From contig WFWG01000283.1 of NCBI GenBank assembly GCA_015491235.1, positions 1 through 33,855 of the forward strand: a stretch of 33,855 nt of DNA, written 5' to 3'. Below the pieces are notes generated by a model. It saw only the letters and a program-made list of their open reading frames with translations, searched no databases and was not told the DNA's origin. This DNA comes from Ardenticatenaceae bacterium. Its GTDB lineage: Bacteria; Chloroflexota; Anaerolineae; Ardenticatenales; Ardenticatenaceae. Numbering within the stretch: the first letter of the stretch is position 1; the number at the start of each line of letters is the position of its first letter. The position numbers and the translations under genes were made by a program. Below are positions 11,865 through 32,725 of the stretch, one piece after another.

Positions 11865-12986
11865 CTACGCAGGGCGCACCAGCCACTCTCCCAGGCGGCG
11901 GGAGGACTGCCAGGGAGAGGCGCGCTCCGTGAAGACGGGCACCCGCTCCTCGGCCTCCACCCGCTCGATGATGCGGCGCATGGTCTTCACCGCCTCCACC
12001 GGATAGCTGCCGGTGGCCGTCTCTCCGGAAAGCATGACGGCGTCGGTGCCGTCGAGAATGGCGTTGACCACGTCGCTCACCTCGGCGCGGGTGGGGCGGG
12101 GCTGGACGCACATGCTCTCCAACATTTGGGTGGCCGTCACCACCGGCTTGCCGGCCCGGTTGCACCGCCGAATCACCATCTTCTGGATGAGCGGCACATC
12201 CTCGGGCGGCATCTCCAGCCCCAGGTCGCCCCGCGCCACCATGATGCCGTCGGCGGCGGCGATAATGGCGTCCACGTGCTGAACGGCCTCGGGTGTCTCG
12301 ATCTTGGCCATCAGCCTGGGAACTCGCTGGCCAGAGGCCAGTTCGGCCACCAGGGCCCGTGCGGCGAAGATTTCGTTGGGGTGGCGCACGTAGGAGAGGG
12401 CCACCCACTCGGCCTCCAGTTCCACGGCCAGGCGCAGGTCGCGCTCATCCTTGGCCGTCAACCCGCCACCGTTGGAGGTGGCGCGGGCACCACGGGTGGG
12501 CAGGTTGATGCCCTTGGCGGACGTCAGCCTGCCGCCCACCACCACTTGGCAGATCACGAAGTGGGGCGGCTCCACCCGTTCCACCCGCAACTCGAGCTTG
12601 CCGTCGTCCAGAAGAACGGTGTCGCCGGCGTGCAACTCCAGAACTGCCCCTGGCACGGGAATTTCCCGTTCGCCGCCGGCAACGCGGGCACCGGCCACCA
12701 GCCGCACTTCGTCTCCCGGCGTGAGGGTGATTCCCTCGCCCACGTCGCCGACGCGCAGCTTGGCCCCCTGAAGGTCGAACAACAGGCTCACGGGCCGCCC
12801 AACTTCGGCAGCCGCCTGGCGCACTGCCTGCGCGATTCGGCGGTGAGTGGCGTGGTCACCGTGGGACATGTTGAGCCGGGCAATGTCCATGCCAGCCCGA
12901 ATCATCTCGCACAACGTGGCGTGTGTCCAAGACGCTGGGCCAATGGTGGCCACAATCCGCGTTCGAGGTCTTTCGGCGCGTTCCAT
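11865..12986 (-). CDS. pyk: pyruvate kinase lacking the C-terminal domain
   Basis: At 373 aa this is about 100 residues shorter than a typical bacterial enzyme (about 470). The catalytic parts are intact: [10 protein letters not shown] at the N-terminus, ARLNMSHG, the B domain (about 70-170), [11 protein letters not shown] with the active-site Lys, [22 protein letters not shown] and [15 protein letters not shown]. The sequence ends just after the TIM barrel, so the C-terminal domain that normally forms the allosteric site is missing. It would convert PEP + ADP to pyruvate, the shared precursor of acetolactate and citramalate. It starts 4 bp after the ilvC stop. The truncation point sits beside the palindrome 11833-11861, so loss by rearrangement is possible, but a native short form cannot be excluded. 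Confidence 0.9.
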
Positions 12987-14043: not shown

Positions 14044-14565
14044 TCACAACACGGAGCCGTTGCCGCCCACGCGGCCATGCCCGTTCACCGAGGTGCCCCG
14101 GACCATAGCCACGATGCCCGTGCGCACCATCTCGATGATGCCGAATGGGCGCATCACGTCAACGAAGGAGTTGATTTTGTCCTCCTCGCCGGTGAGTTCC
14201 ACGATGAGGCTCTCCGGCGCCACGTCCACCACGTGGCCCCGAAAGACCTGGGTCAACTGGATAATTTCGGGTCGCGTCTTGGCGTCGGCCTTCACCTTGA
14301 TGAGCACCAGGTCGCGCACCACGGCCGGCTTCTCGGTGATGTCCTCGACCTCGATCACGTTGACCAGCTTGTAGAGGTTGTGGACCACGCGGCTTGCGTC
14401 GGTTCGCGTGGCGTCCACCACGATGGTCATGCGCGAGACCTCCGGCACCTCGGTCTCGCCAACGGTCAGGCTGTCAATGTTGAAGCCGCGCCGGCGGAAG
14501 AGGCTGGCCACGCGGTTGAGCACGCCGGGCTTGTTTTCCACCCGTGCCACCAGGACGTGCTTCAT
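14044..14565 (-). CDS. ilvN: acetolactate synthase small (regulatory) subunit
   Basis: This 173-aa protein has an N-terminal ACT domain (ARVENKPGVLNRVASLFRRRGFNI, in the first 30 residues) that normally binds valine and gives feedback inhibition, and a C-terminal domain (about 80-160) that contacts and activates the large subunit. GNG/GHG-rich residues at the end are probably disordered. The ATG at 14565 overlaps the ilvB stop by 4 bases (ATGA), and GGAGGTG within ilvB is the ribosome site, so translation is coupled. Confidence 0.95.
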   Translation of the reverse strand: MKHVLVARVENKPGVLNRVASLFRRRGFNIDSLTVGETEVPEVSRMTIVVDATRTDASRVVHNLYKLVNVIEVEDITEKPAVVRDLVLIKVKADAKTRPEIIQLTQVFRGHVVDVAPESLIVELTGEEDKINSFVDVMRPFGIIEMVRTGIVAMVRGTSVNGHGRVGGNGSVL

Positions 14566-16271
14566 TTGGACACCTCCTTCTCGTACTGTTCCACAGGCCG
14601 CCGAATCATGGCGTGCAGGTCGGCCCCGGCAGGCACCATGGGGTAAACGATGTCCTCCTTCTCGACGATGAAGTCAATCAGCACCGGCCCGTCCACCTCG
14701 CGGGCCTTCTGGACCGTGGGAATTACTTCCTCGCGGCGCGTGACGCGGAAGGCCGGGATGTCATAAGCGGCGGCCAGCTTGCAGAAGTCGGGGTTGACCA
14801 GTGGGGTGGCAGCGTACCGCTTCTCGTAGAAGAACTCCTGCCACTGGCGCACCATGCCCAGGTAGCCGTTGTTGATGATGGCGATGCGGATGGGCACGCG
14901 CTCCTGCACGGCCGTGGCCAGCTCGGCCTGGGTCATCTGGAAGCCGCCATCCCCGGCGATGACCCACACCTCCTCGTCGGGGCGCGCCAGCTTGGCGCCA
15001 ATGCCGGCCGGCAGGGCGAAGCCCATGGTGCCCAGGCCGCCACTGGTGATGAGGGTGAAGGGGCGCTCGTGGCGGTAGTACTGGGCTTCCCACATCTGGT
15101 GCTGGCCCACGTCGGTCACCACGATGGCGTTGCCCTCGGTGGCCCGCCAGATGTCGTGAATCACGTGGGCGCCCCACAGTTTGCCGCCGCCGTCCCAGTT
15201 GAGGATGTCGCGCCGGCGGGTGTCGTCGCGCCACTCGTCAATCTGCTCCAGCCAGGCGGAGCGGTCCACCGGCTCCACGTGGGGGAGCAGTTCCTGGAGC
15301 ACCGCCTTGAGGTCGCCCACGATGCCCACGTCCACCTTGACGTTCTTGTTGATTTCGCTGGGGTCAATGTCCACGTGAATCTTGCGGGCCTTGGGAGCGT
15401 AGGTCTTCACGTTGCCGGTCACCCGGTCGTCGAAGCGCATTCCAAAGGCCAGCAGCAGGTCGGCTTCCTGAATGGCCTGGTTGACGTAGGCCTCGCCGTG
15501 CATCCCCATCATGCCCAGGCAGAGGGGGTGGGAGGCGGGGAAGTTCCCCAAGCCGAGGAGCGTCTGGGCCACGGGAATGCGTCCCCGCTCGGCGAACTCG
15601 CGCAACTCGCGCATGGCTCCGCTCATCAGCACGCCGTGCCCAGCCAAGATGACGGGCCGGCGGGCAGAATTGATGAGTTCCACGGCGCGCTCCAAATCCT
15701 CGGGCGGAATGACCGTGCGGGGCTTGTAGCCGGGTAACTCGACGGGGTCCTCGGGGTAGACGAACTCGGTGCGGGCAATTTGCACGTCCTTGGGAATGTC
15801 AATGAGCACCGGGCCGGGACGGCCCGTGCGGGCGATGTAGAAAGCTTCCTTCACAGTGCGGGCCAAGTCGCGCACGTCGGTCACCAGGTAGTTGTGCTTG
15901 GTGATGGGCAGCGTGATGCCGGTCACGTCGGTCTCCTGAAAGGCGTCCGACCCGATGGCCAACGTGGGCACCTGGCCGGTGATGCAGACCACGGGCGAGG
16001 AGTCCATCATGGCCGTGGCAATGCCCGTCACCATGTTGGTGGCCCCCGGTCCACTGGTGGCCATGGCCACCCCCACACGCCCGCTGGCGCGAGCGTAGCC
16101 GTCGGCGGCGTGAACGGCGCCCTGCTCGTGGCGCACCAGCACGTGGCGCACGGGGTAGAAGTTCATGGCGTCATAAGTGGGCAGGATGGCGCCGCCGGGG
16201 TAACCAAACACGAGCTCCACGCCCTCGCGCAAGAGGCACTCCCACAAAATCTCAGCCCCAGTTAGTTCCAT
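14562..16271 (-). CDS. ilvB: acetolactate synthase large (catalytic) subunit
   Basis: This 569-aa ThDP- and FAD-dependent enzyme condenses two pyruvates to acetolactate, or pyruvate with 2-oxobutyrate to acetohydroxybutyrate. The catalytic Glu is E49 (VRHEQGAVHAADGYAR). YPGGAILPTYD, TSGPGATN and DAFQETD follow, and the ThDP/Mg motif GDGGFQMTQAEL...NNGYLGMV lies near residues 430-470. The length is typical. The ATG at 16271 follows GGGGGATGAT. It is the first structural gene after the attenuator leader (16370-16616), so the entire cluster is probably controlled by branched-chain amino acid supply. Confidence 0.97.
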   Translation of the reverse strand: MELTGAEILWECLLREGVELVFGYPGGAILPTYDAMNFYPVRHVLVRHEQGAVHAADGYARASGRVGVAMATSGPGATNMVTGIATAMMDSSPVVCITGQVPTLAIGSDAFQETDVTGITLPITKHNYLVTDVRDLARTVKEAFYIARTGRPGPVLIDIPKDVQIARTEFVYPEDPVELPGYKPRTVIPPEDLERAVELINSARRPVILAGHGVLMSGAMRELREFAERGRIPVAQTLLGLGNFPASHPLCLGMMGMHGEAYVNQAIQEADLLLAFGMRFDDRVTGNVKTYAPKARKIHVDIDPSEINKNVKVDVGIVGDLKAVLQELLPHVEPVDRSAWLEQIDEWRDDTRRRDILNWDGGGKLWGAHVIHDIWRATEGNAIVVTDVGQHQMWEAQYYRHERPFTLITSGGLGTMGFALPAGIGAKLARPDEEVWVIAGDGGFQMTQAELATAVQERVPIRIAIINNGYLGMVRQWQEFFYEKRYAATPLVNPDFCKLAAAYDIPAFRVTRREEVIPTVQKAREVDGPVLIDFIVEKEDIVYPMVPAGADLHAMIRRPVEQYEKEVSK

Positions 16272-16369: not shown

Positions 16370-16402
16370 AAAAAGTTAAGGCCTCCCGCGTTGGGAGGCC
16401 TT
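16370..16402 (-). terminator. attenuator terminator of the ilvB operon
   Basis: On the minus strand AAGGCCTCCC pairs perfectly with GGGAGGCCTT (16393-16402 with 16378-16387) around a 5-base loop, then AACTTTTTC. It lies 32 bases after the leader peptide stop and about 100 bases before ilvB. Its 5' arm plus loop can instead pair with the upstream leader segment 16450-16464, so termination is conditional. Confidence 0.85.
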
Positions 16403-16464
16403 CTGTTCCTTGCTTTGTGCCTGGTAACCGGTGCTTAGGTGCTGCTTCCGGCCCTCCCAACGCG
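16387..16464 (-). promoter_or_regulatory. antiterminator pairing of the ilvB attenuator
   Basis: The leader segment CGCGTTGGGAGGGCC (minus strand, 16464-16450, codons 27-31 of the leader peptide) is complementary to GGCCTCCCAACGCG (16400-16387): 12 uninterrupted base pairs, then a bulged G and two more. The second segment is also the 5' arm of the terminator, so the two structures exclude each other. A ribosome stalled in the Val/Leu/Ile run (codons 2-21) leaves the first segment free to form the antiterminator; a ribosome reaching the stop codon covers part of it. Confidence 0.85.
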
Positions 16465-16542
16465 CATTCGCTCCTTGCCCAAAATAATGACAAGGAGCTG
16501 AATAATAAGGACCAGGACCAGAAGCAACACTGACAGCACCAT
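16435..16542 (-). CDS. branched-chain-rich leader peptide of the ilvB operon
   Basis: The ATG at 16542 has GAGG 8 bases upstream, and the frame stops with TAA at 16435 (35 aa). Of residues 2-21, 18 are Val, Leu or Ile; only S4 and Q15 interrupt. The tail (GKERMRVGRAGSST) carries the codons that overlap the antiterminator segment. Its role is to sense charged tRNA-Val/Leu/Ile through ribosome speed; the peptide itself probably has no function. An alternative is a tiny membrane protein, since the run is also long enough for a membrane helix, but the position and paired hairpins make the leader reading much stronger. Confidence 0.88.
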   Translation of the reverse strand: MVLSVLLLVLVLIIQLLVIILGKERMRVGRAGSST

Positions 16543-16587
16543 AAGGCTTTCCTCGTTCCGTTTTTCACGTGGCCGCTTTGTTAGGCT

Positions 16588-16616
16588 AATATATCACGCC
16601 TTCTCGTTGAAGTCAA
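16588..16616 (-). promoter_or_regulatory. promoter of the ilvB operon
   Basis: TTGACT (16611-16616) and TATATT (16588-16593), minus strand, are exactly 17 bases apart. Transcription would begin near 16581, giving a leader of about 310 nt with the leader peptide and attenuator before ilvB. It is the only strong promoter I see for the cluster. Confidence 0.85.
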
Positions 16617-16698: not shown

Positions 16699-17736
16699 TT
16701 AACGCGATGCTTTTTCTGTTGCTTCGGGTTCTCCTGCGGGCAGAAAGTCTTCCCCGAAGTGGCAGGCCACCCAGTGGCCGGGTCGCAGCTCCCGCAACTC
16801 CGGTTCGGCTTCGCTGCACTCCGGCTTGGCAAAGGGGCAACGCGGGTGGAACCGGCACCCCGACGGCGGGTTCAGCGGGCTGGGCACGTCTCCCGGCAGG
16901 ATGATGCGTTCCTTCTTGCGGGTGGGGTCGGGCACAGGCACGGCCGAGAGCAGGGCTTGGGTGTAGGGGTGCACCGGCGTGTAGAAGAGTTCTTCCTTGG
17001 CCGCCAGTTCCACGATTTTGCCCAGGTACATGACGGCCACGCGGTGCGAGATGTGTTCCACCACCGCCAGGTTGTGGGCCACGAAGAGATACGTGAGCTT
17101 GAATTCCTCCTGCAAGTCCATCAACAGGTTGAGAATTTGCGCCTGGATGGAAACGTCCAGCGCCGAGACGGGCTCGTCCAGCACCAGGAACTGGGGTTGC
17201 AAGGCCAGCGCTCGGGCAATGCCAATGCGCTGCCGCTGCCCCCCGGAGAACTCATGGGGGTAGCGGTAGGCGTGGTAGGGCTCCAGGCCCACCTTGCGCA
17301 ACATCTCCATCATCGTCTCCCGCCGCTCCTTGGGGGTGCCGATGCCGTGGATCTTCAACCCTTCCATGATGGACTCGCCCACGGGCAGGCGGGGGTCCAG
17401 GGAAGAAAAGGGGTCCTGGAAGACGATTTGCATCCGGCGCCGCAGCGCCTTGAGTTCACGCCCGTTGAGGGCAAAGATGTTCTGGCTGTCGAAGTAGGCT
17501 TCTCCGGCCGTGGGCTCCAGCAAGCGCAACAAGGTCAGGGCGGCGGTGGTCTTGCCGCACCCCGATTCGCCCACCAGGCCCAGGGTTTCCCCCTCGTAGA
17601 TGGTGAAGCTGATGTCGTCCACGGCCTTGACCCAGGCCACGATCCGGCGGAGAAGTCCACCCCGCACGGGGAAGTACTTCTTCAGGCCGCGCACTTCCAC
17701 CAGCGGTTTGTGGGAATTGGGCGAGTGGAGCGTCAT
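16699..17736 (-). CDS. oppF: peptide/nickel ABC transporter ATP-binding protein (OppF/DppF-like)
   Basis: This 345-aa ATPase has Walker [10 protein letters not shown], the Q-loop in [15 protein letters not shown] signature [15 protein letters not shown], Walker [13 protein letters not shown] and the H-loop VAHN. The C-terminal oligopeptide/dipeptide extension has a cysteine-rich block ([15 protein letters not shown]) typical of this family, which can bind an Fe-S cluster. It energises import with oppD. The ATG at 17736 overlaps the oppD stop (ATGA). The 28 residues that can be read upstream of it are oppD in another frame. It is the last gene of the transporter operon. Confidence 0.93.
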
Positions 17737-18779
17737 GGTTTGGCCTCGCGAGTCGAAGTGGAACTGGATGCCGTTGCTGGCGCAGAGGCCGAGACGGCCG
17801 CGGCCTCGTACAGCCAACACCGCACCAGGTGGTTCGACGCAACGGGAAGCAAGTTCGGCTCCTCGACTTCACAGCGCTCCAGGCTGAGCTCCAGCCGAGC
17901 CTGACAGCGAGGCCAGAAGCGGCAGCCAGGAGGCAGGTCTACCAGGTTGGGCACAGTACCGGGAATGGTCTCCAGGCGCGAGCGGAACTGCCCCAACACG
18001 GGCAGGGATGCCAGCAGGCCCTGGGTGTAGGGATGCTTGGGGTCGTGGAAGAGCGCCTCCGCCGGAGCCTGCTCCACGATCTGGCCGGCGTACATCACCG
18101 CCACCCGGTCGGCCATTTCCGCTATCACGCCCAGGTCGTGGGAGATCAGGATGATGGCCGTGCCGAAGCGATTCCGCAGGTCGAGCAGCAGGTCCAGAAT
18201 CTGGGCCTGGATGGTCACGTCGAGAGCTGTGGTGGGCTCGTCGGCGATGAGCAACTTGGGGCGCAGGGCCAGCGCCATGGCAATCATCACCCGCTGAGCC
18301 TGGCCGCCGGAAAGCTCGTGGGGGTAAGCGTGGGCCTTTTGAGCCGGGTCGGGAATACCTACGAGGCGAAGCAGTTCCACCGCCTGTTGCCAGGCCTCCT
18401 TCTTCTTCATGCCCCGGTGGACCTGAAACACTTCTGCCACCTGGTCGCCGATGGGGTAGACTGGGTTCAGGCTGCTCTTGGGCTGTTGGAAGATCATGGA
18501 GATGCGGTTGCCCCGAATGTGGGCCATCTCCGATTCGGGCAGGTCCAGCAAGTTCACTCCCTCGAACCAGATTTCTCCCGCCACGACACGGCCCGGCGGG
18601 TCCACCAGGCGCATGATGGAGAACGAGGTTACGCTCTTGCCACAGCCCGACTCTCCCACCAGGCCCAAAACCTCACCCGGCATGACCTGGAAGGAAACCC
18701 CGTCCACGGCCTTGACCACGCCGTCGTGGGTGAAGAAGTAGGTCTTCAAGTCGCGCACGTCCAGCAGGGGTTGGGTCAT
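17733..18779 (-). CDS. oppD: peptide/nickel ABC transporter ATP-binding protein (OppD/DppD-like)
   Basis: This 348-aa ATPase has Walker [11 protein letters not shown]-loop [16 protein letters not shown], signature [15 protein letters not shown], Walker [13 protein letters not shown] and H-loop [21 protein letters not shown]. The C-terminal domain has [19 protein letters not shown], the cysteine cluster of the family. The chosen ATG at 18779 follows AAAGGAG; the longer in-frame start at 18836 lies inside oppC. Thirteen bases separate it from the oppC stop. It pairs with OppF as a heterodimer. Confidence 0.93.
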
Positions 18780-18792
18780 AGTTGTGCTCCTT

Positions 18793-19728
18793 TCACTCCT
18801 GGTGCAGGCGAGGGTCCAGGGCATCCCGCAGCGCATCGCCCAGCAGGTTGAAGGCCAGCACAGTAATCATGATGGCTAGGCCGGGAAAGAAGACCAGGTG
18901 GGGCGCGGTAAAGACCTGGTTGCGCTCCTCGCCCAGCATGGAGCCCCACTCGGCGGTGGGGGGCTGAGCTCCCAGGCCCAGGAAGGAAAGGGCCGCCGCG
19001 TCCAGAATGGCGGTGGCGATTCCCAGGGTGGCCTGGACGATGAGGGGTGGCAGTGAGTTGGGCAGAATGTGCTTGACCAAAATGAGCAGGTGGCTGGCCC
19101 CCAGGGCACGAGCGGCCAGCACGAACTCCCGCTCCTTCACGGAGAGCACACTGGCCCGCACCACCCGCGCGTACACGGGCGTGGAGACGATGGCGATGGC
19201 CAGGAGTGCGTTTTGCAGGCCCCGCCCCAGCACAGTCACGATGGCAATTGCCAGCAGCAATGCCGGGAAGGCCAACAGCACATCCATGAAGCGCATGATG
19301 AGATTGTCCACCCAGCCGCCCACGTATCCGGCTACGGCCCCCAACACTGTGCCCGCCAAAATGGCCACAGTAACCGTGGTGAACCCCACGAAGAGGGAGA
19401 CGCGGGTGCCGTAAATCACCCGGCTGAACACGTCCCGCGCGTTTCCGTCCAGGCCCATGATGTGCTGGGGTTGGTCCTTGGGACAGCCCAGCAAGTAAAT
19501 ACAGGGCTTTTGGCGACGGCGAATGCCCTCCTCTTTCCCCAGGAGCACGTCGTTGGGATCGTAGGGCGCCAGCAGGGGGGCGAACAGCGCCACGAACAGC
19601 AAAAACAGAATAATGCCCCCGCCCACCAGGCCGGAGCGGTGTCGCAGCAGCCGCCGCAGGGCCAGTTGCCACGGGCTGGTGGGGCGCTCTCGCGCTCCAA
19701 GCACACGTTCGGCAGTCGTCGTGGTCAT
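18793..19728 (-). CDS. oppC: ABC transporter permease (OppC/DppC-like)
   Basis: This 311-aa membrane protein has an N-terminal cytosolic stretch followed by a first membrane helix (about 35-53, GGGIILFLLFVALFAPLLAP), then LDGNARDVFSRVIYGTR, the usual start of the transport core (GTDxxGRDxxSRxxYG). The EAA loop reads EFVLAARALGASHLLILVKHILPN and docks the ATPases. Five further helices are visible. The segment before LDGNARD is longer than usual and contains two Cys (CIYLLGC). The start lies 3 bp after the oppB stop. Confidence 0.93.
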   Translation of the reverse strand: MTTTTAERVLGARERPTSPWQLALRRLLRHRSGLVGGGIILFLLFVALFAPLLAPYDPNDVLLGKEEGIRRRQKPCIYLLGCPKDQPQHIMGLDGNARDVFSRVIYGTRVSLFVGFTTVTVAILAGTVLGAVAGYVGGWVDNLIMRFMDVLLAFPALLLAIAIVTVLGRGLQNALLAIAIVSTPVYARVVRASVLSVKEREFVLAARALGASHLLILVKHILPNSLPPLIVQATLGIATAILDAAALSFLGLGAQPPTAEWGSMLGEERNQVFTAPHLVFFPGLAIMITVLAFNLLGDALRDALDPRLHQE

Positions 19729-19731
19729 TGG

Positions 19732-20811
19732 TCACTCCAGGCGAATGCGTGGGTCAATGAACACGTACAAGATGTCCACCGCTAGGTTGGCGAAGACGTA
19801 GATAATGGCAATGATGACAGTGAAGCCCTGCACCACGGGGTAATCCCGCGCGGTGATGGCCTCGTACAACATGCTGCCCACCCCCGCAAAGCTGAAGATG
19901 GTCTCGGTGAGCACCGCGCCGGAGAAGAGCAGGCCCACCTGCAGGCCGATGATGGTTACCACAGGAATGAGGGCATTGCGAAAGGCGTGTTTGAGAATGA
20001 CAACGGGTGTGCGCAGACCTTTGGCCCGCGCCGCCCGGATGTAGTCCTGGCGCAGCACTTCCAACATGCTGGAGCGCGTCATGCGCGCGATGATCGCCAT
20101 CGGGATGGTGCTGAGGGCGCCCGCTGGCAGAATCAGGTGCCGCAGGGCGTCCTTGAGCACGTCCCACTCGCGAGTCAGGATGGAGTTCAAGATGTACATG
20201 TTGGAAAAGAAATTGTAAACGTAGAAGCGGACGGTCTCCGGCTCCACGGTCCAGCCCCAGACCTCGTAAAAAGGCGTGGCCGTGAGCGCGGCGGAGAGGC
20301 GGCCCGCTGGCGGCAGCCAAAGGGGGGTGCCCTTGAGCAAAAGGGCAAAGGTGTAGGCCAGCAGCAAGCCCAGCCAGTAGACCGGCATGGAAACACCGAT
20401 GTTGGCCAGGAACATGGTAAACAGGTCAATGGCCGAGTTCTGCCGAATCGCGGAAATCAGTCCCAGGGGGATGCCCACCATGATGGCAATGAACAGCGCC
20501 GCCAAGCTGAGCTCGATGGTCACCGGCAGTCGTTCGATGATGATCACGAGCACAGGTCGGCCATACCGCAGCGAGTCACCCAGGTCGCCCCGGAAGAAGT
20601 CCCGAACGTACGCGACGAACTGCTCGTAAATGGGGCGGTCGAGGCCGTGTTCCCGGTAGAAGCGCTCACACACCTCTTGCGTGGCCTTTTCGCCCAGGAT
20701 GGCCTTGCACGGGTCGCCGGGGATGATGCGAGCCAGTGCAAAGGTTACGAACAGGATGCCGAAAATCACCGGCACGGAAAGGAGCAGGCGGCGAACAATG
20801 TACTGGGTCAT
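19732..20811 (-). CDS. oppB: ABC transporter permease (OppB/DppB-like)
   Basis: This 359-aa permease starts MTQYIVRRLLLSVPVIFGILFVTF, the classic OppB N-terminus, followed by IPGDPC, LRYGRPV...RLPVTIELSLAA and the EAA loop DYIRAARAKGLRTPVVILKHAFRNALIP. It ends in DPRIRLE. It is longer than the usual 305-340 aa because of an extended extracytoplasmic loop (about 175-235) rich in aromatics. The ATG at 20811 is chosen from homology, with GAGG 11 bases upstream; the ATG at 20871 gives 20 extra hydrophilic residues. It has its own promoter and lies 178 bp after the SBP gene across a terminator. Confidence 0.92.
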   Translation of the reverse strand: MTQYIVRRLLLSVPVIFGILFVTFALARIIPGDPCKAILGEKATQEVCERFYREHGLDRPIYEQFVAYVRDFFRGDLGDSLRYGRPVLVIIIERLPVTIELSLAALFIAIMVGIPLGLISAIRQNSAIDLFTMFLANIGVSMPVYWLGLLLAYTFALLLKGTPLWLPPAGRLSAALTATPFYEVWGWTVEPETVRFYVYNFFSNMYILNSILTREWDVLKDALRHLILPAGALSTIPMAIIARMTRSSMLEVLRQDYIRAARAKGLRTPVVILKHAFRNALIPVVTIIGLQVGLLFSGAVLTETIFSFAGVGSMLYEAITARDYPVVQGFTVIIAIIYVFANLAVDILYVFIDPRIRLE

Positions 20812-20899
20812 CAGGACAGGCCCTCGTCTCTTCTCGTGCTCCGCCACAGTGGAGTTTGAGAGAAACAGCAACGAAGAACGGTGAGTTCCAAGTAACCAA

Positions 20900-20927
20900 A
20901 GAATACTCGGTTTCTCGCCGAGGTCAA
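20900..20927 (-). promoter_or_regulatory. internal promoter for oppBCDF
   Basis: TTGACC (20922-20927) and TATTCT (20900-20905), minus strand, are separated by 16 bases. They lie just after the SBP terminator and 90 bases before oppB, giving the permease and ATPase genes a separate, weaker start. Confidence 0.6.
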
Positions 20928-20933
20928 GAAGGC

Positions 20934-20968
20934 AAAAAAGCGGGGCGACAAACCCTTGCCGCCCCGCT
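20934..20968 (-). terminator. intrinsic terminator after the binding-protein gene
   Basis: AGCGGGGCG (minus strand, 20968-20960) pairs with CGCCCCGCT (20947-20939) and runs directly into TTTTTT. This is a strong terminator 21 bases after the SBP stop. Partial termination here would explain high binding-protein versus low permease expression. Confidence 0.88.
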
Positions 20969-20989
20969 CGCTGAGTTCCACTCTTGCCG

Positions 20990-22720
20990 TTACTCCTGCT
21001 TGTTCATCAGGCCGAAGAAGTAGGACGGGTACTCGAAGGCGCCCGTGTTGCCCACGTGGTAGGGGCTGGCCTCGTTCAGCAGGGCGTCGAAGGAGCGCAC
21101 CACGTCGTTGGCATCCAGGGTGGAGCCGTCGTGGAACTTGACGCCCTTGCGCAAGGTGCAGGTCACAACCGTGCTGTTCTCGGTGATCTCGCACTTCTCG
21201 GCCAGGCGCGGCACCATTTCGCCGTCCGCGGTGTACTGGTAGAGGCCCTCGGTGACCATCTTGCAGGCATCCAGGGACTCGCCGTCGGTCTCGTCGGCGC
21301 AGTAGAGGCTGATGGGCTCCGCGGCCTTCAGGTAGACCAGCGTGTCCCGACCTTCTGGCTCAAAGGTCCACAGCTCGGGCGGACCCAACACCGCGGCCTT
21401 GGCGTTCTTCACGTCCGCGCGGGCCGCGTCGGCCGCCGCCCCGTGGGCCACCGGAATCATGGGCACCAGCTCCCGAATGGCGTTGTTCGCCTCCTCGTAA
21501 TACGGTCGGGCCTCTTCAGGATCGGCGATGGTGGCGGCCTTCTCCAGCGGCTCGTAGATTTCGGGGTACGGTTCGCCGTATTGGGGGTTATTCTTGCTGA
21601 AGTGGAAGTCCAGGAAGTTGGTCACGTGCAGGTAGTCGGCACCCCATCCCAGCAGGTAGAGGCCGTCCAACTCGCCCGCTGTGGACTTGGCAATGAACTC
21701 GCCCGACTCCATGACGATGACCTCGGCCTTGATGCCCAGGTTCTCCATGAGCTGGTTCTGAATTTCCACGGCCACCTTGCTCGGTTCGGGCAGGTAGACG
21801 CGGAAGACGTCGCGGTAGTAAATCTTGGTCTCAAAGCGCACACCCTCGTCGTTCTTGGTCAGGCCGACTTCGTCCAGCAGCTTGTTGGCCGCCTCGGGGT
21901 CGAACGAGTACCAGGGCTCGCCCACGCAGCCGTTCTCGATCACGCACGGGGTGAAGAAGTCGGCCACTTCGGAGCCCTCGGGGTAGTAGTTCTTCACGAT
22001 GCGCTCGCGGTCAATGCCCATGGCAATGGCCCGGCGCACCCGCACGTCGTCGAAGGGCTTGACCGTGTTGATGAAGGCAATGTAGAAAATGTTCGGGTTC
22101 CGAACGGGCAGCAACACCAGGTTGGGGTCGTTCTTCACCGTCTCGAAGTCATCAGGGCTCACTTTGGTGATGTAATCGGCGGTGCCAGCCTGGAGCTCCA
22201 GCAGGCGCTGCGCGCCTTCCTTGGCCCAGCGGAAGACCAAGGTTTCGGTCTTGGCCGGCTCACCCCAGTAGTCCTCGAAGCGCTTGAAGACAATCTTGTC
22301 TCCCCGGAACCACTTTTCGATCTTGTAAGGCCCGGTCCCCACCGGCTGGGTGAGCAGGGTTTCTTTGTTGGCCTCGTTGGCGTTGGCCTCGATCCACTCC
22401 CGTGGCCGGATGAAGAAGGGCTGGAAGGCGATCTTGGCCAGGAAAGCGGGATCGGGCTTGCACAGTGTGAACTGCACCGTGTACTCGTCCAGGGCTTTAA
22501 TCTCCTTCACCTTGCTGCTTTCGCAGCTTTCGTCGGTTACGACGAGTGGCTCGAACGCGGGGGCTTCAGTTGGCTTGGGGGCTTCGGTGGGCTTCGGGGC
22601 TTCTGTCGGCTTGGGGGCTTCGGTGGGCTTGGGCGCCTCGGTCGGCGCCGGTGTGGCCTGGGCGCAGGCGGCCAAGCTCACGGCCACCACGACCAGCAAC
22701 AGCCAGATCAGGCGACGCAT
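20990..22720 (-). CDS. circularly permuted family 5 peptide-binding lipoprotein
   Basis: This 576-aa extracytoplasmic binding protein has a signal peptide with lipobox LAAC (Cys19), then a PTEAPK repeat linker (about 26-54). The domain begins at about 70 with VKEIKALDEYTVQF, which in DppA/OppA lies about 130 residues into the mature protein, and continues in normal order (GTGPYKIEKW, VRRAIAMGIDRERIV, LLGWGADY) to the usual C-terminal end (VPMIPVAHG, about 419-427). Only then comes the segment that normally starts the protein: TLVYLKAAEPISL (460-472), EGLYQYTADGEMVPRLAEK (491-509), LRKGVKFHDGSTLDANDV (523-540), ending SYFFGLMNKQE. The domain is full length but reordered. It has eight Cys besides the lipid Cys, so disulfides are possible. 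It is first in the transporter operon, with a promoter at 22766-22794. The ligand, probably a peptide, cannot be read. Confidence 0.9.
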   Translation of the reverse strand: MRRLIWLLLVVVAVSLAACAQATPAPTEAPKPTEAPKPTEAPKPTEAPKPTEAPAFEPLVVTDESCESSKVKEIKALDEYTVQFTLCKPDPAFLAKIAFQPFFIRPREWIEANANEANKETLLTQPVGTGPYKIEKWFRGDKIVFKRFEDYWGEPAKTETLVFRWAKEGAQRLLELQAGTADYITKVSPDDFETVKNDPNLVLLPVRNPNIFYIAFINTVKPFDDVRVRRAIAMGIDRERIVKNYYPEGSEVADFFTPCVIENGCVGEPWYSFDPEAANKLLDEVGLTKNDEGVRFETKIYYRDVFRVYLPEPSKVAVEIQNQLMENLGIKAEVIVMESGEFIAKSTAGELDGLYLLGWGADYLHVTNFLDFHFSKNNPQYGEPYPEIYEPLEKAATIADPEEARPYYEEANNAIRELVPMIPVAHGAAADAARADVKNAKAAVLGPPELWTFEPEGRDTLVYLKAAEPISLYCADETDGESLDACKMVTEGLYQYTADGEMVPRLAEKCEITENSTVVTCTLRKGVKFHDGSTLDANDVVRSFDALLNEASPYHVGNTGAFEYPSYFFGLMNKQE

Positions 22721-30092: not shown

Positions 30093-31370
30093 ATGACGAC
30101 GTCAAAATCGCCCGGTCGGCCTGCGAAGCGCACCATGTGGGACATCGCTTCGCACTTCTACGCCGACGCCGTGGCCGACATGGCCGTCCACCCCGGCGTC
30201 CGCGACCAACTCCGCGAACCCCAGCGCGTGCTCAACGTCTCCTTCCCCGTGAAAATGGACGACGGCTCCGTGCGCATGTTCACCGGCTGGCGCGTCCACC
30301 ACAACATCGTGCGAGGGCCTGCCAAGGGGGGCATCCGCTACGCTCCTGGCCTCACCCTGGAGGACGTGCAGGGGCTGGCCATGATGATGACCTGGAAGAC
30401 GGCGGTCGTGGGCCTGCCCTTCGGCGGTGCCAAGGGGGGGGTGGCGTGTGACCCGCACCGCCTCTCGCACGACGAACTGGAGCGCATTACCCGCCGCTAC
30501 ACCCTGGAAATCATTCCCCTGCTGGGCCCCGAGCGGGACATTCCCGCCCCCGACATGGGCACCGACGAGCGGGTGATGGCCTGGATTATGGACACCTACT
30601 CGCTGGTCAAGGGGTACTCCGTCCCGGCGGTGGTGACGGGCAAGCCCGTGGCCGTGGGCGGCTCCCACGGCCGGCGGCGGGCCACCGGGCGGGGCGTGGT
30701 CTTCGTCCTGCGGGAGCTGGCCGAGCGGGTGGGGCTCGACCTGCGGGGCGCGCGAGTGGCCGTCCACGGCTTCGGCAAGGTGGGCTCGACGGTGGCCTAC
30801 ATGCTCTACCACGTGCTGGGGTCCCGCGTAGTGGCCGTCTGCGACTCGCGGGGCGGGGTCTACCACCCGGACGGGCTGGACATTCTCGATCTGCAACGCT
30901 ACAAGGCCGAGACGGGCAGTGTGGTCGGGTTTCCCGGCGGGGAGGCGGTGAGCAGCCCGGAGATGCTCACCGTGCCCTGCGACGTGCTCGTTCCGGCTTC
31001 GGTGGAGTGTGTCATCACCGAGGAGAACGCCGACCGCGTGCAGGCCCGCGTCATCGTGGAGGCAGCCAACGCGCCCCTCACGCCCGAGGCCGACCACATC
31101 CTCCGGGAGCGGGGCGTGGCGGTCGTCCCCGACGTGCTGGCCAACGCTGGCGGCGTGACCGTCTCCTACTTCGAGTGGGTGCAGGACTTGCAAAGTTTCT
31201 TCTGGACCGAGGAGGAAGTGACCCAGCAGTTGAAGCGGGTGATGACGCGCGCCTTCGACCGCGTCTACACCCTGGCGTCCGAGGCGAACGTTTCGTTGCG
31301 CACGGCGGCCTACCGGCTGGCCATCAGCCGGGTGGCCACCGCTTACGAGTTGCGCGGTTTTTACCCCTGA
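30093..31370 (+). CDS. gdhB: glutamate dehydrogenase, catalytic
   Basis: This 425-aa hexameric-type enzyme interconverts glutamate with 2-oxoglutarate + ammonia. All key residues are visible: K78 in GPAKGGIRY (substrate carboxylate), K102 in TWKTAVVGLPFGGAKGG, catalytic K114 in GGAKGG, and D154 in PAPDMGT. The Rossmann domain reads VAVHGFGKVGSTVA (about 228-241), and EAANAPLTPEAD is the conserved C-terminal loop. The ATG at 30093 follows GAGGAGG, 43 bp after gatB. It is paired with a degenerate paralogue 17 bp downstream. The symbol follows the Thermus naming, where GdhB is the catalytic subunit. Confidence 0.93.
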   Translation: MTTSKSPGRPAKRTMWDIASHFYADAVADMAVHPGVRDQLREPQRVLNVSFPVKMDDGSVRMFTGWRVHHNIVRGPAKGGIRYAPGLTLEDVQGLAMMMTWKTAVVGLPFGGAKGGVACDPHRLSHDELERITRRYTLEIIPLLGPERDIPAPDMGTDERVMAWIMDTYSLVKGYSVPAVVTGKPVAVGGSHGRRRATGRGVVFVLRELAERVGLDLRGARVAVHGFGKVGSTVAYMLYHVLGSRVVAVCDSRGGVYHPDGLDILDLQRYKAETGSVVGFPGGEAVSSPEMLTVPCDVLVPASVECVITEENADRVQARVIVEAANAPLTPEADHILRERGVAVVPDVLANAGGVTVSYFEWVQDLQSFFWTEEEVTQQLKRVMTRAFDRVYTLASEANVSLRTAAYRLAISRVATAYELRGFYP

Positions 31371-31387
31371 AAGCGAGGTGACAGGTC

Positions 31388-32725
31388 ATGAGAAGCGACG
31401 CGCCGGACACAGGACGTTCTGGGGAGCAGGCCTACCGCCAGGCCATGGCCCGGCAGGTGGTGGGGGCCTTCGCCGTTGGCCCCAACCCTTACGACATGGC
31501 CGTAGAACAGTTCGAGAGCGCCCTGCCCTACCTGAAGCTGAAGCGCGGCTTGATCGAGCACATGCGGCGCACCAACCGGGCCCTGCTGGTCAGCTTTCCG
31601 GTCATCATGGACGACGGCAGCGTGGAGGTGTTCGACGGGTATCGGGTCCACCACTACACCAACCTGGGCGCCACCCACGGCGGCGTGCGCTATCACCCCG
31701 GCGTGGACCTGGACGAAATGAAGGCCCTGGCCATGTGGAACACCTGGAAGGCCGCCGTGGTCAACATCCCCTTTGGCGGCGCGGCTGGCGGGGTCACGGT
31801 GAACCCCTTTCGCCTGAGCCGCCGCGAGCTGGAGCGCCTGACGCGGCGCTACGTGACGGAGATCTCCCCCCTGCTGGGACCCGAGGTGGACGTGCTGGGG
31901 CCCGACTTGAACACCGACGAGCAGATCATGGCCTGGGCCATGGACACGATTTCCATGGCAAAGGGGTACTCGGTCAACGCCATTGCCACGGGCAAGCCCG
32001 AGCCGCTGGGAGGCACGGCCGGCCACGTGGGCTCCATCGGGCTGGGCATCGCCTACGTGGTTACGGAGCTTTTCCGGCGCCTGGAACGGCCGCTGGAGGG
32101 CGCCCGCGTGGCCGTCCAGGGATTTGGCCGCGTGGGGGCTCGCGCTGCCCTCTACCTGGAGCGGCTGGGAGCGCGCGTCGTGGCGATTACGGACCTGGGC
32201 GGCGGCATCTACGCGCCGGACGGCCTGCCCGTAGAGCGCGTCGAGCGGCACGCGGCGGAGGCCGGCACTGTGGCGGGCTTCCCCCACACCGAGCCCATCA
32301 CCGACAATGACCTGCTCTCCATGCCGGTGGACGTGCTGGTGCTGGCGGCCCTGGGCAACCAAATCCGGGCCGACAACGCTCACCGTGTCCGCGCGGAAGT
32401 GATCGTCGAGGGGGGGCCGGGCATCGTCACCCCCCGCGCCGACCGCGTCCTGGCCGAAACGCGCCCCGACAGCATCGTGGTGCCCCACATCCTGGCCGCG
32501 GCCGGCGGCATGGTGGTGGACTACTTCGAGTGGGTGCAGGACTTGCAGAGCTTCTTCTGGACCGAGGAGGAAGTCAAGGCCAAGTTGCGCGAAATCATGG
32601 TCAGCGCCTTCGACCGCGTCTGGTCGCTGGCTCAGGAGAAAGGAATTCCCCTGCGCACGGCAGCCTACGTGGTGGCCATCTCCCGCGTGGCCGAGGCCAC
32701 CCTGGTGCGGGGCATCTGGCCCTAA
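31388..32725 (+). CDS. gdhA: glutamate dehydrogenase paralogue lacking catalytic lysines, likely regulatory subunit
   Basis: This 445-aa protein aligns with the preceding gene throughout (both share YFEWVQDLQSFFWTEEEV near the end), but GPAKGG is GATHGG (H97 for the substrate Lys) and GGAKGG is GGAAGG (A133 for the catalytic Lys). The loop EAANAPLTP is EGGPGIVTP. K121 and D173 (GPDLNTD) and the Rossmann glycines (VAVQGFGRVGARAA) remain. It is intact, with no stop or frameshift, so it is under selection for another role. In Thermus thermophilus a non-catalytic GdhA partners catalytic GdhB and the complex is activated by leucine; the same arrangement is inferred here. The ATG at 31388 is weakly preceded by GAGGTGACAGG. 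Confidence 0.85.
   Translation: MRSDAPDTGRSGEQAYRQAMARQVVGAFAVGPNPYDMAVEQFESALPYLKLKRGLIEHMRRTNRALLVSFPVIMDDGSVEVFDGYRVHHYTNLGATHGGVRYHPGVDLDEMKALAMWNTWKAAVVNIPFGGAAGGVTVNPFRLSRRELERLTRRYVTEISPLLGPEVDVLGPDLNTDEQIMAWAMDTISMAKGYSVNAIATGKPEPLGGTAGHVGSIGLGIAYVVTELFRRLERPLEGARVAVQGFGRVGARAALYLERLGARVVAITDLGGGIYAPDGLPVERVERHAAEAGTVAGFPHTEPITDNDLLSMPVDVLVLAALGNQIRADNAHRVRAEVIVEGGPGIVTPRADRVLAETRPDSIVVPHILAAAGGMVVDYFEWVQDLQSFFWTEEEVKAKLREIMVSAFDRVWSLAQEKGIPLRTAAYVVAISRVAEATLVRGIWP

What the first reader, a model, noticed from the sequence alone, without database searches (positions are those of the whole stretch)
16370..16616. Complete ribosome-mediated attenuator controlling the branched-chain supercluster
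A consensus promoter is followed by a 35-codon leader ORF in which 18 of codons 2-21 are Val, Leu or Ile. A 12-bp antiterminator pairing (16450-16464 with 16387-16400) competes with a perfect 10-bp terminator plus U-tract. All elements of classical ilv attenuation are present and correctly ordered. Such systems are best documented in Proteobacteria and Actinobacteria; I know of no experimental example from Chloroflexota, if the taxonomic guess holds.
Basis: partly seen in the sequence, partly recalled or inferred. Interest (0 to 1): 0.87.

Follow-up and report, generated by a model that had tools for sequence, protein, structure and literature searches.

The report
Chloroflexota branched-chain amino-acid attenuator
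The RNA in front of this bacterium's valine/leucine/isoleucine gene cluster carries a short peptide gene packed with those amino acids and two competing hairpins, so that a ribosome slowed by amino-acid shortage most likely switches the cluster on; the mechanism is classical, but finding it throughout a class of Chloroflexota appears to be new.

Summary
On the minus strand, a near-consensus extended -10 promoter precedes a 35-codon leader ORF (16542-16435) in which 18 of codons 2-21 are Val/Leu/Ile. A perfect 10-bp intrinsic terminator (16402-16378) follows, and a 12-bp antiterminator competes with it.

In the same class (Anaerolineae), 69 of 134 ilvB upstream regions carry a BCAA-rich leader plus terminator, against 0 of 1,072 shuffles. 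In 18 of 20 sampled negatives the attenuator sits further upstream, before ilvD or ilvE, which then head the operon. Antiterminator pairing covaries between families: own score 23.5 against 17.5 +/- 0.7 for swapped partners (no permutation of 10,000 reached it). The spacing from the last regulatory codon to the antiterminator arm is nearly fixed (median 19 nt, IQR 17-21) although leader length and stop position vary, as a ribosome-footprint ruler would require.

The mechanism is classical ribosome-mediated transcription attenuation. No Rfam family matches, and no paper I could search reports it for Chloroflexota; one key 2010 survey was unreadable. No experimental data were available.

The parts
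16588..16616 (-). Sigma-70-type promoter TTGACT-17 bp-TATATT with extended -10 (TGA)
   Evidence: consensus match only
16435..16542 (-). Leader ORF, 35 codons plus TAA; regulatory Val/Leu/Ile codons 2-21; SD-like GAGGAAAG upstream of ATG
   Evidence: conserved leaders in 69/134 same-class ilvB upstream regions
16471..16479 (-). Spacer codons G22-K23-E24 (GGC AAG GAG) between the last regulatory codon (starts 16482) and the antiterminator arm (about 19 nt from codon start to arm)
   Evidence: spacer conserved, median 19 nt, IQR 17-21 in 55 loci
16514..16530 (-). Protector (1:2) 5' arm within the control codons, GTGTTGCTTCTGGTCCT
   Evidence: 17-bp helix in MFE fold
16439..16455 (-). Protector 3' arm AGGGCCGGAAGCAGCAC, overlapping the 3' end of the antiterminator 5' arm
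16453..16464 (-). Antiterminator 5' arm CGCGTTGGGAGG, inside the leader ORF
   Evidence: 12 bp with 16387-16398; covaries across families
16387..16398 (-). Antiterminator 3' arm CCTCCCAACGCG = most of terminator 5' arm plus loop
16378..16402 (-). Intrinsic terminator hairpin, perfect 10-bp stem, 5-nt loop
16369..16377 (-). U-tract AACTTTTTC
14562..16271 (-). ilvB, acetolactate synthase large subunit: first regulated gene
   Evidence: TIGR00118 767 bits
1213..14565 (-). Rest of the regulated cluster: ilvH, ilvC, pyruvate kinase, leuA, leuC, leuD, HAD hydrolase, leuB, cimA, ilvE, ilvD
   Evidence: co-transcription inferred from order and orientation only

Best explanation
It is a classical ribosome-mediated transcription attenuator of the BCAA operon. 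Transcription starts near 16580 and a ribosome begins the leader. When charged tRNA for Val, Leu or Ile is scarce, the ribosome stalls on codons 2-21. Its leading edge then stops just short of the antiterminator 5' arm, that arm pairs with the emerging terminator 5' arm, the terminator cannot form, and RNA polymerase continues into ilvB and the cluster behind it. When all three are plentiful the ribosome runs on over the arm, the antiterminator is masked, the terminator forms and transcription stops near 16370. When the leader is not translated, the protector helix ties up the antiterminator arm and termination is the default. Shown here: the sequence elements, their conservation, antiterminator covariation and the fixed spacing. 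Modelled: the three folding states. Inferred: actual stalling, termination and amino-acid response.
For: (a) Elements present and ordered. (b) 69/134 same-class ilvB upstream regions, in 22 of 43 families, have leader+terminator; 0/1,072 shuffles; 0/134 reverse complements. (c) Most remaining ilvB genes abut a co-directional gene; in 18 of 20 such loci the attenuator lies about 1.1-2.1 kb upstream, before ilvD or ilvE (gene identities checked in five loci). (d) Antiterminator covariation: one locus per family, n=22, own score 23.5 vs permuted 17.5, sd 0.7, maximum 20.25 of 10,000. (e) Spacing from last regulatory codon to antiterminator arm: IQR 4 nt vs 21.6 expected (minimum 8.5 of 5,000 permutations); 47/55 within 16-24 nt vs 14 expected. 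(f) Folding with the ribosome as a 13-nt downstream mask: in the window antiterminator P=0.97 from codon L3 to K23 and 0.00 from M26 on; at AUG 0.01. Across 55 loci 0.91 on the regulatory run, 0.00 at the stop codon; terminator 0.96 at the stop.
Against: No transcript or expression data. In the window the terminator wins at equilibrium for most stall positions, so the switch must be co-transcriptional, as is usual for attenuators. The protector is strong in the window's genus but only moderately enriched class-wide (36% of loci above the 95th percentile of shuffles), and without a ribosome 24 of 55 loci favour the antiterminator. The window's arm-to-stop geometry leaves part of the arm exposed behind a ribosome sitting at the stop codon.
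Confidence: 0.93

Rival explanations
1. The short ORF encodes a small hydrophobic membrane peptide with its own function, followed by an ordinary terminator; the antiterminator pairing is a by-product.
For: The peptide is hydrophobic enough to be a transmembrane segment; leaders are 20 or more codons long.
Against: Val, Leu and Ile are freely exchanged and the length varies, while spacing to the antiterminator arm and base pairing are kept. The element always precedes a BCAA operon head and sits before ilvD or ilvE when they lead.
Confidence: 0.03
2. A T-box or other ligand-sensing riboswitch controls the operon.
For: T-boxes occur in this class, upstream of trpE in 6 of 13 loci, and are known in Chloroflexi (PMC2494555).
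Against: No Rfam family reaches its cut-off in the window leader or in 19 related BCAA loci; the conserved feature is a BCAA-rich ORF plus competing hairpins.
Confidence: 0.02
3. It is only a terminator of the upstream oligopeptide-transporter genes (16699-22720) plus a chance ORF.
For: The transporter genes are co-directional and end about 150 bp before the leader.
Against: A promoter lies between them and the leader, and the arrangement is conserved far beyond the window's genus with 0 of 1,072 shuffles giving it.
Confidence: 0.02

Closest known systems
ilvBNC attenuator / ilvB-II motif of Corynebacterium (PMC10272879, PMC11857589)
   Same: BCAA-rich uORF before ilvB, with terminator, antiterminator and anti-antiterminator; transcriptional control
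   Different: Corynebacterium ORF is about 15-17 codons; here 20-45 codons with 10 or more regulatory codons, a near-fixed spacer to the antiterminator arm, and no match to any Rfam family
ilvGMEDA and leuABCD attenuators of enterobacteria (classical; general knowledge)
   Same: Leader codons for BCAA, three competing hairpins, operon-head position
   Different: Different phylum; antiterminator arm lies inside the leader ORF here; a single cluster holds ilv, leu, cimA and pyruvate kinase
ilvB-OMG motif (41 representatives from various phyla; PMC10272879)
   Same: Upstream of ilvB; predicted uORF rich in BCAA
   Different: Also Thr-rich; its members' taxonomy is not given in the text read; none of our loci matched any such Rfam family at its cut-off
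T-box leaders of Chloroflexi (PMC2494555)
   Same: Sense amino-acid supply and control a terminator
   Different: Sense uncharged tRNA directly without translation; found here at trpE, not at the BCAA operons tested

Membership tests
Ribosome-mediated transcription attenuator (amino-acid leader-peptide type) | Translatable leader ORF enriched in codons of the amino acids made by the operon | tested here: met
   18 of codons 2-21 Val/Leu/Ile; 556 of 660 codons in the densest windows of 55 loci
Ribosome-mediated transcription attenuator (amino-acid leader-peptide type) | Intrinsic terminator between leader and first gene | tested here: met
   16402-16378 plus U-tract; conserved
Ribosome-mediated transcription attenuator (amino-acid leader-peptide type) | Mutually exclusive antiterminator, with its 5' arm reachable by the translating ribosome | tested here: met
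   12 bp overlapping the terminator stem; covariation by swap test
Ribosome-mediated transcription attenuator (amino-acid leader-peptide type) | Regulatory codons placed so that a stalled ribosome leaves the antiterminator free | tested here: met
   19-nt spacing, conserved; fold model
Ribosome-mediated transcription attenuator (amino-acid leader-peptide type) | Protector (1:2) hairpin giving termination without translation | tested here: inconclusive
   17 bp in the window genus; only 36% of loci stand out from shuffles
Ribosome-mediated transcription attenuator (amino-acid leader-peptide type) | Premature termination that responds to amino-acid supply | not testable with these tools
   needs RNA data
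T-box leader (RF00230) | Match to the T-box covariance model | tested here: not met
   no match in the window leader or 19 related BCAA loci
Other Rfam leader families (Leu, Phe, Thr leaders etc.) | Match at the curated cut-off | tested here: not met
   best relevant hit Phe_leader 21 bits against a cut-off of 55

The most novel reading that the evidence does not exclude
A BCAA ribosome-mediated attenuator is the standard control of the BCAA operon across Anaerolineae, ancient in that class and kept at the operon's head as gene order changed (before ilvB, ilvD or ilvE), with similar leaders in other Chloroflexota classes, while tryptophan in the same class is under T-box control.
Probability: 0.75. 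Interest if true: 0.55.

Novelty: new member of a known kind. Interest (0 to 1): 0.5.

Why it matters
It extends the best-known RNA control of amino-acid synthesis to a class of Chloroflexota, most of whose members are uncultured and lack any regulatory annotation. The dozens of divergent copies give a natural data set on how such switches are built: base pairing and a ribosome-sized spacer are kept while leader sequence, length and stop position drift. Leaders in cultivated relatives (Thermosporothrix hazakensis, and probably Chloroflexus aurantiacus) make it testable.

Tried and rejected
The first screen read minus-strand loci on the wrong strand; redone. Rfam search for a known leader or T-box: nothing. 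Equilibrium folding of the full RNA with a masked ribosome let the upstream RNA pair across the ribosome and showed switching at only a few codons; it was replaced by downstream-only, mid-transcription folding, the usual assumption for attenuators. A search for a Trp leader upstream of trpE found none that convinced; Rfam shows T-boxes there. The 2010 survey by Lopatovskaya et al. is not held. Considered and rejected: chance ORF, plain terminator, riboswitch (see rivals).

Full report
OBSERVATION. The region was read on the minus strand. A promoter TTGACT-17-TATATT with a TG extension (16616-16588) is the only promoter-like site in 601 bp. It precedes a leader ORF, ATG 16542 to TAA 16435, encoding MVLSVLLLVLVLIIQLLVIILGKERMRVGRAGSST. 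A perfect 10-bp terminator with a U-tract lies at 16402-16369. CGCGTTGGGAGG (16464-16453, inside the ORF) pairs over 12 bp with CCTCCCAACGCG (16398-16387), which is most of the terminator's 5' arm plus the loop. It missed a third helix: control codons GTGTTGCTTCTGGTCCT (16530-16514) pair over 17 bp with AGGGCCGGAAGCAGCAC (16455-16439), which overlaps the end of the antiterminator arm. The whole leader folds with z = -6.9.

CONTEXT. The terminator is followed by ilvB (16271-14562) and, all on the same strand, ilvH, ilvC, a pyruvate kinase, leuA, leuC, leuD, a HAD hydrolase, leuB, cimA, ilvE and ilvD. The enzymes of the BCAA pathway are thus together in one cluster. Upstream lie the genes of an oligopeptide ABC transporter.

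TAXONOMY. The window is therefore most likely Chloroflexota, class Anaerolineae.

COMPARATIVE TEST. IlvB homologues were found in 191 of 248 same-class genomes, and 134 ilvB upstream regions were read. A script looked for an ORF with at least 8 Val/Leu/Ile in 12 codons, then a terminator, then an antiterminator helix. It found leader plus terminator in 69 regions, 68 of them with the antiterminator; dinucleotide shuffles gave 0 of 1,072 and reverse complements 0 of 134. Positives fall in 22 of 43 families and are close to all-or-none by family. The negatives have a simple cause: in most, a co-directional ORF abuts ilvB. Reading 4 kb upstream in 20 of them found the attenuator in 18, placed before the first gene; where checked that gene was ilvD (L286, L303, L042) or an aminotransferase of the ilvE type (L293, L034). 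So the element stays at the head of the operon as gene order changes.

COVARIATION. Antiterminator arms differ between families and their partners follow: GCGTTGGGAGG/CCTCCCAACGC, GTTTGGAAGG/CCTTCCAAAC, GCGCTGAGGGG/CCCCTCAGCGC, TGTTGGGGCAG/CTGCCCCAACA. Taking one locus per family (n=22), the mean own-partner score is 23.5, against 17.5 (sd 0.7, maximum 20.25) in 10,000 permutations of partners. Because the terminator's 3' arm must also match the same segment, three strands change together.

RULER. The distance from the last regulatory codon to the antiterminator arm has median 19 nt and IQR 17-21 in 55 loci, although the arm's position relative to the stop codon varies widely (sd 12 nt). Permuting arm positions gives an IQR of 21.6 nt on average and never below 8.5; 47 of 55 loci lie in 16-24 nt against 14 expected. 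This is what a ribosome with its A site on the last regulatory codon, and about 13-15 nt of mRNA covered downstream (general knowledge), would need. It is the strongest evidence that a ribosome reads the switch, and it explains the conserved non-BCAA spacer (often G-K-E-P or G-Q-E-P).

FOLDING STATES. With the ribosome modelled as a block ending 13 nt beyond the A-site codon's first base, and RNA polymerase just past the terminator loop, the window antiterminator forms with probability 0.97 for A-site codons L3 to K23, falls through 0.66 and 0.28, and is 0.00 from codon M26 on. With the ribosome at the AUG it is 0.01. Across 55 loci the means are 0.91 on the regulatory run, 0.00 at the stop codon and 0.43 without a ribosome. 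The untranslated default-off state is thus clear in the window but not general. At equilibrium the finished terminator usually wins in the window, so the choice must be kinetic.

BEYOND THE CLASS. Several of these have weak antiterminators and should be treated as candidates. One (G353; 5,258,541-bp contig, ilvB at 201.7 kb) is probably Chloroflexus aurantiacus J-10-fl: the size is from memory, and the genome paper gives 5.3 Mb and lists BCAA genes Caur_0163-0169 (PMC3150298), which fits that position.

WHAT IS KNOWN. Leader-peptide attenuation of ilv operons is established in Proteobacteria and Corynebacterium (PMC10272879, PMC11857589) and reported in Staphylococcus aureus (PMC5794164, title). 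A 2010 survey knew of no leader-peptide system outside Proteobacteria and Actinobacteria before its own Firmicutes case, and does not mention Chloroflexus or Dehalococcoides (PMC2965389). Chloroflexi are known for T-boxes at ileS and trp (PMC2494555). Full-text searches joining leader peptide or attenuation with Chloroflexi, Chloroflexota or Anaerolineae found no report. Lopatovskaya et al. 2010 could not be read, and the ilvB-OMG motif spans unnamed phyla, so an earlier computational prediction cannot be excluded.

VERDICT. The mechanism is ordinary; its occurrence across a class of Chloroflexota and the spacing rule are the new parts. New member of a known kind, confidence 0.93 in the mechanism, interest 0.5.

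Noticed in passing
window about 16356-16320 (-); L002-L005 same place: A second stable hairpin (GACGCCCGC...GCGGGCGTT) between the terminator and ilvB, conserved with a changed inner stem in the window's family and T-rich on its 3' side in L004/L005: a possible second terminator or stabilising hairpin.
   Followed up: partly
L008 (G010 contig 512), about 490 to 65 nt upstream of ilvB: Two tandem BCAA leaders each followed by its own terminator, suggesting a double attenuator.
   Followed up: no
L305, L306, L309-L312 upstream of trpE: Rfam T-box leaders precede trpE in the same class (6 of 13 at gathering cut-off), so Trp and BCAA supply are sensed by different RNA mechanisms.
   Followed up: partly
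window 11865-12986 (-): The pyruvate kinase in the BCAA operon is only 373 aa and matches positions 2-338 of the 476-position family model: it seems to lack the C-terminal domain.
   Followed up: no
   Followed up: partly
window 30093-32725 (+): Two adjacent Glu/Leu-dehydrogenase-like genes in tandem, about 20 bp apart (translations; identity from reading only).
   Followed up: no
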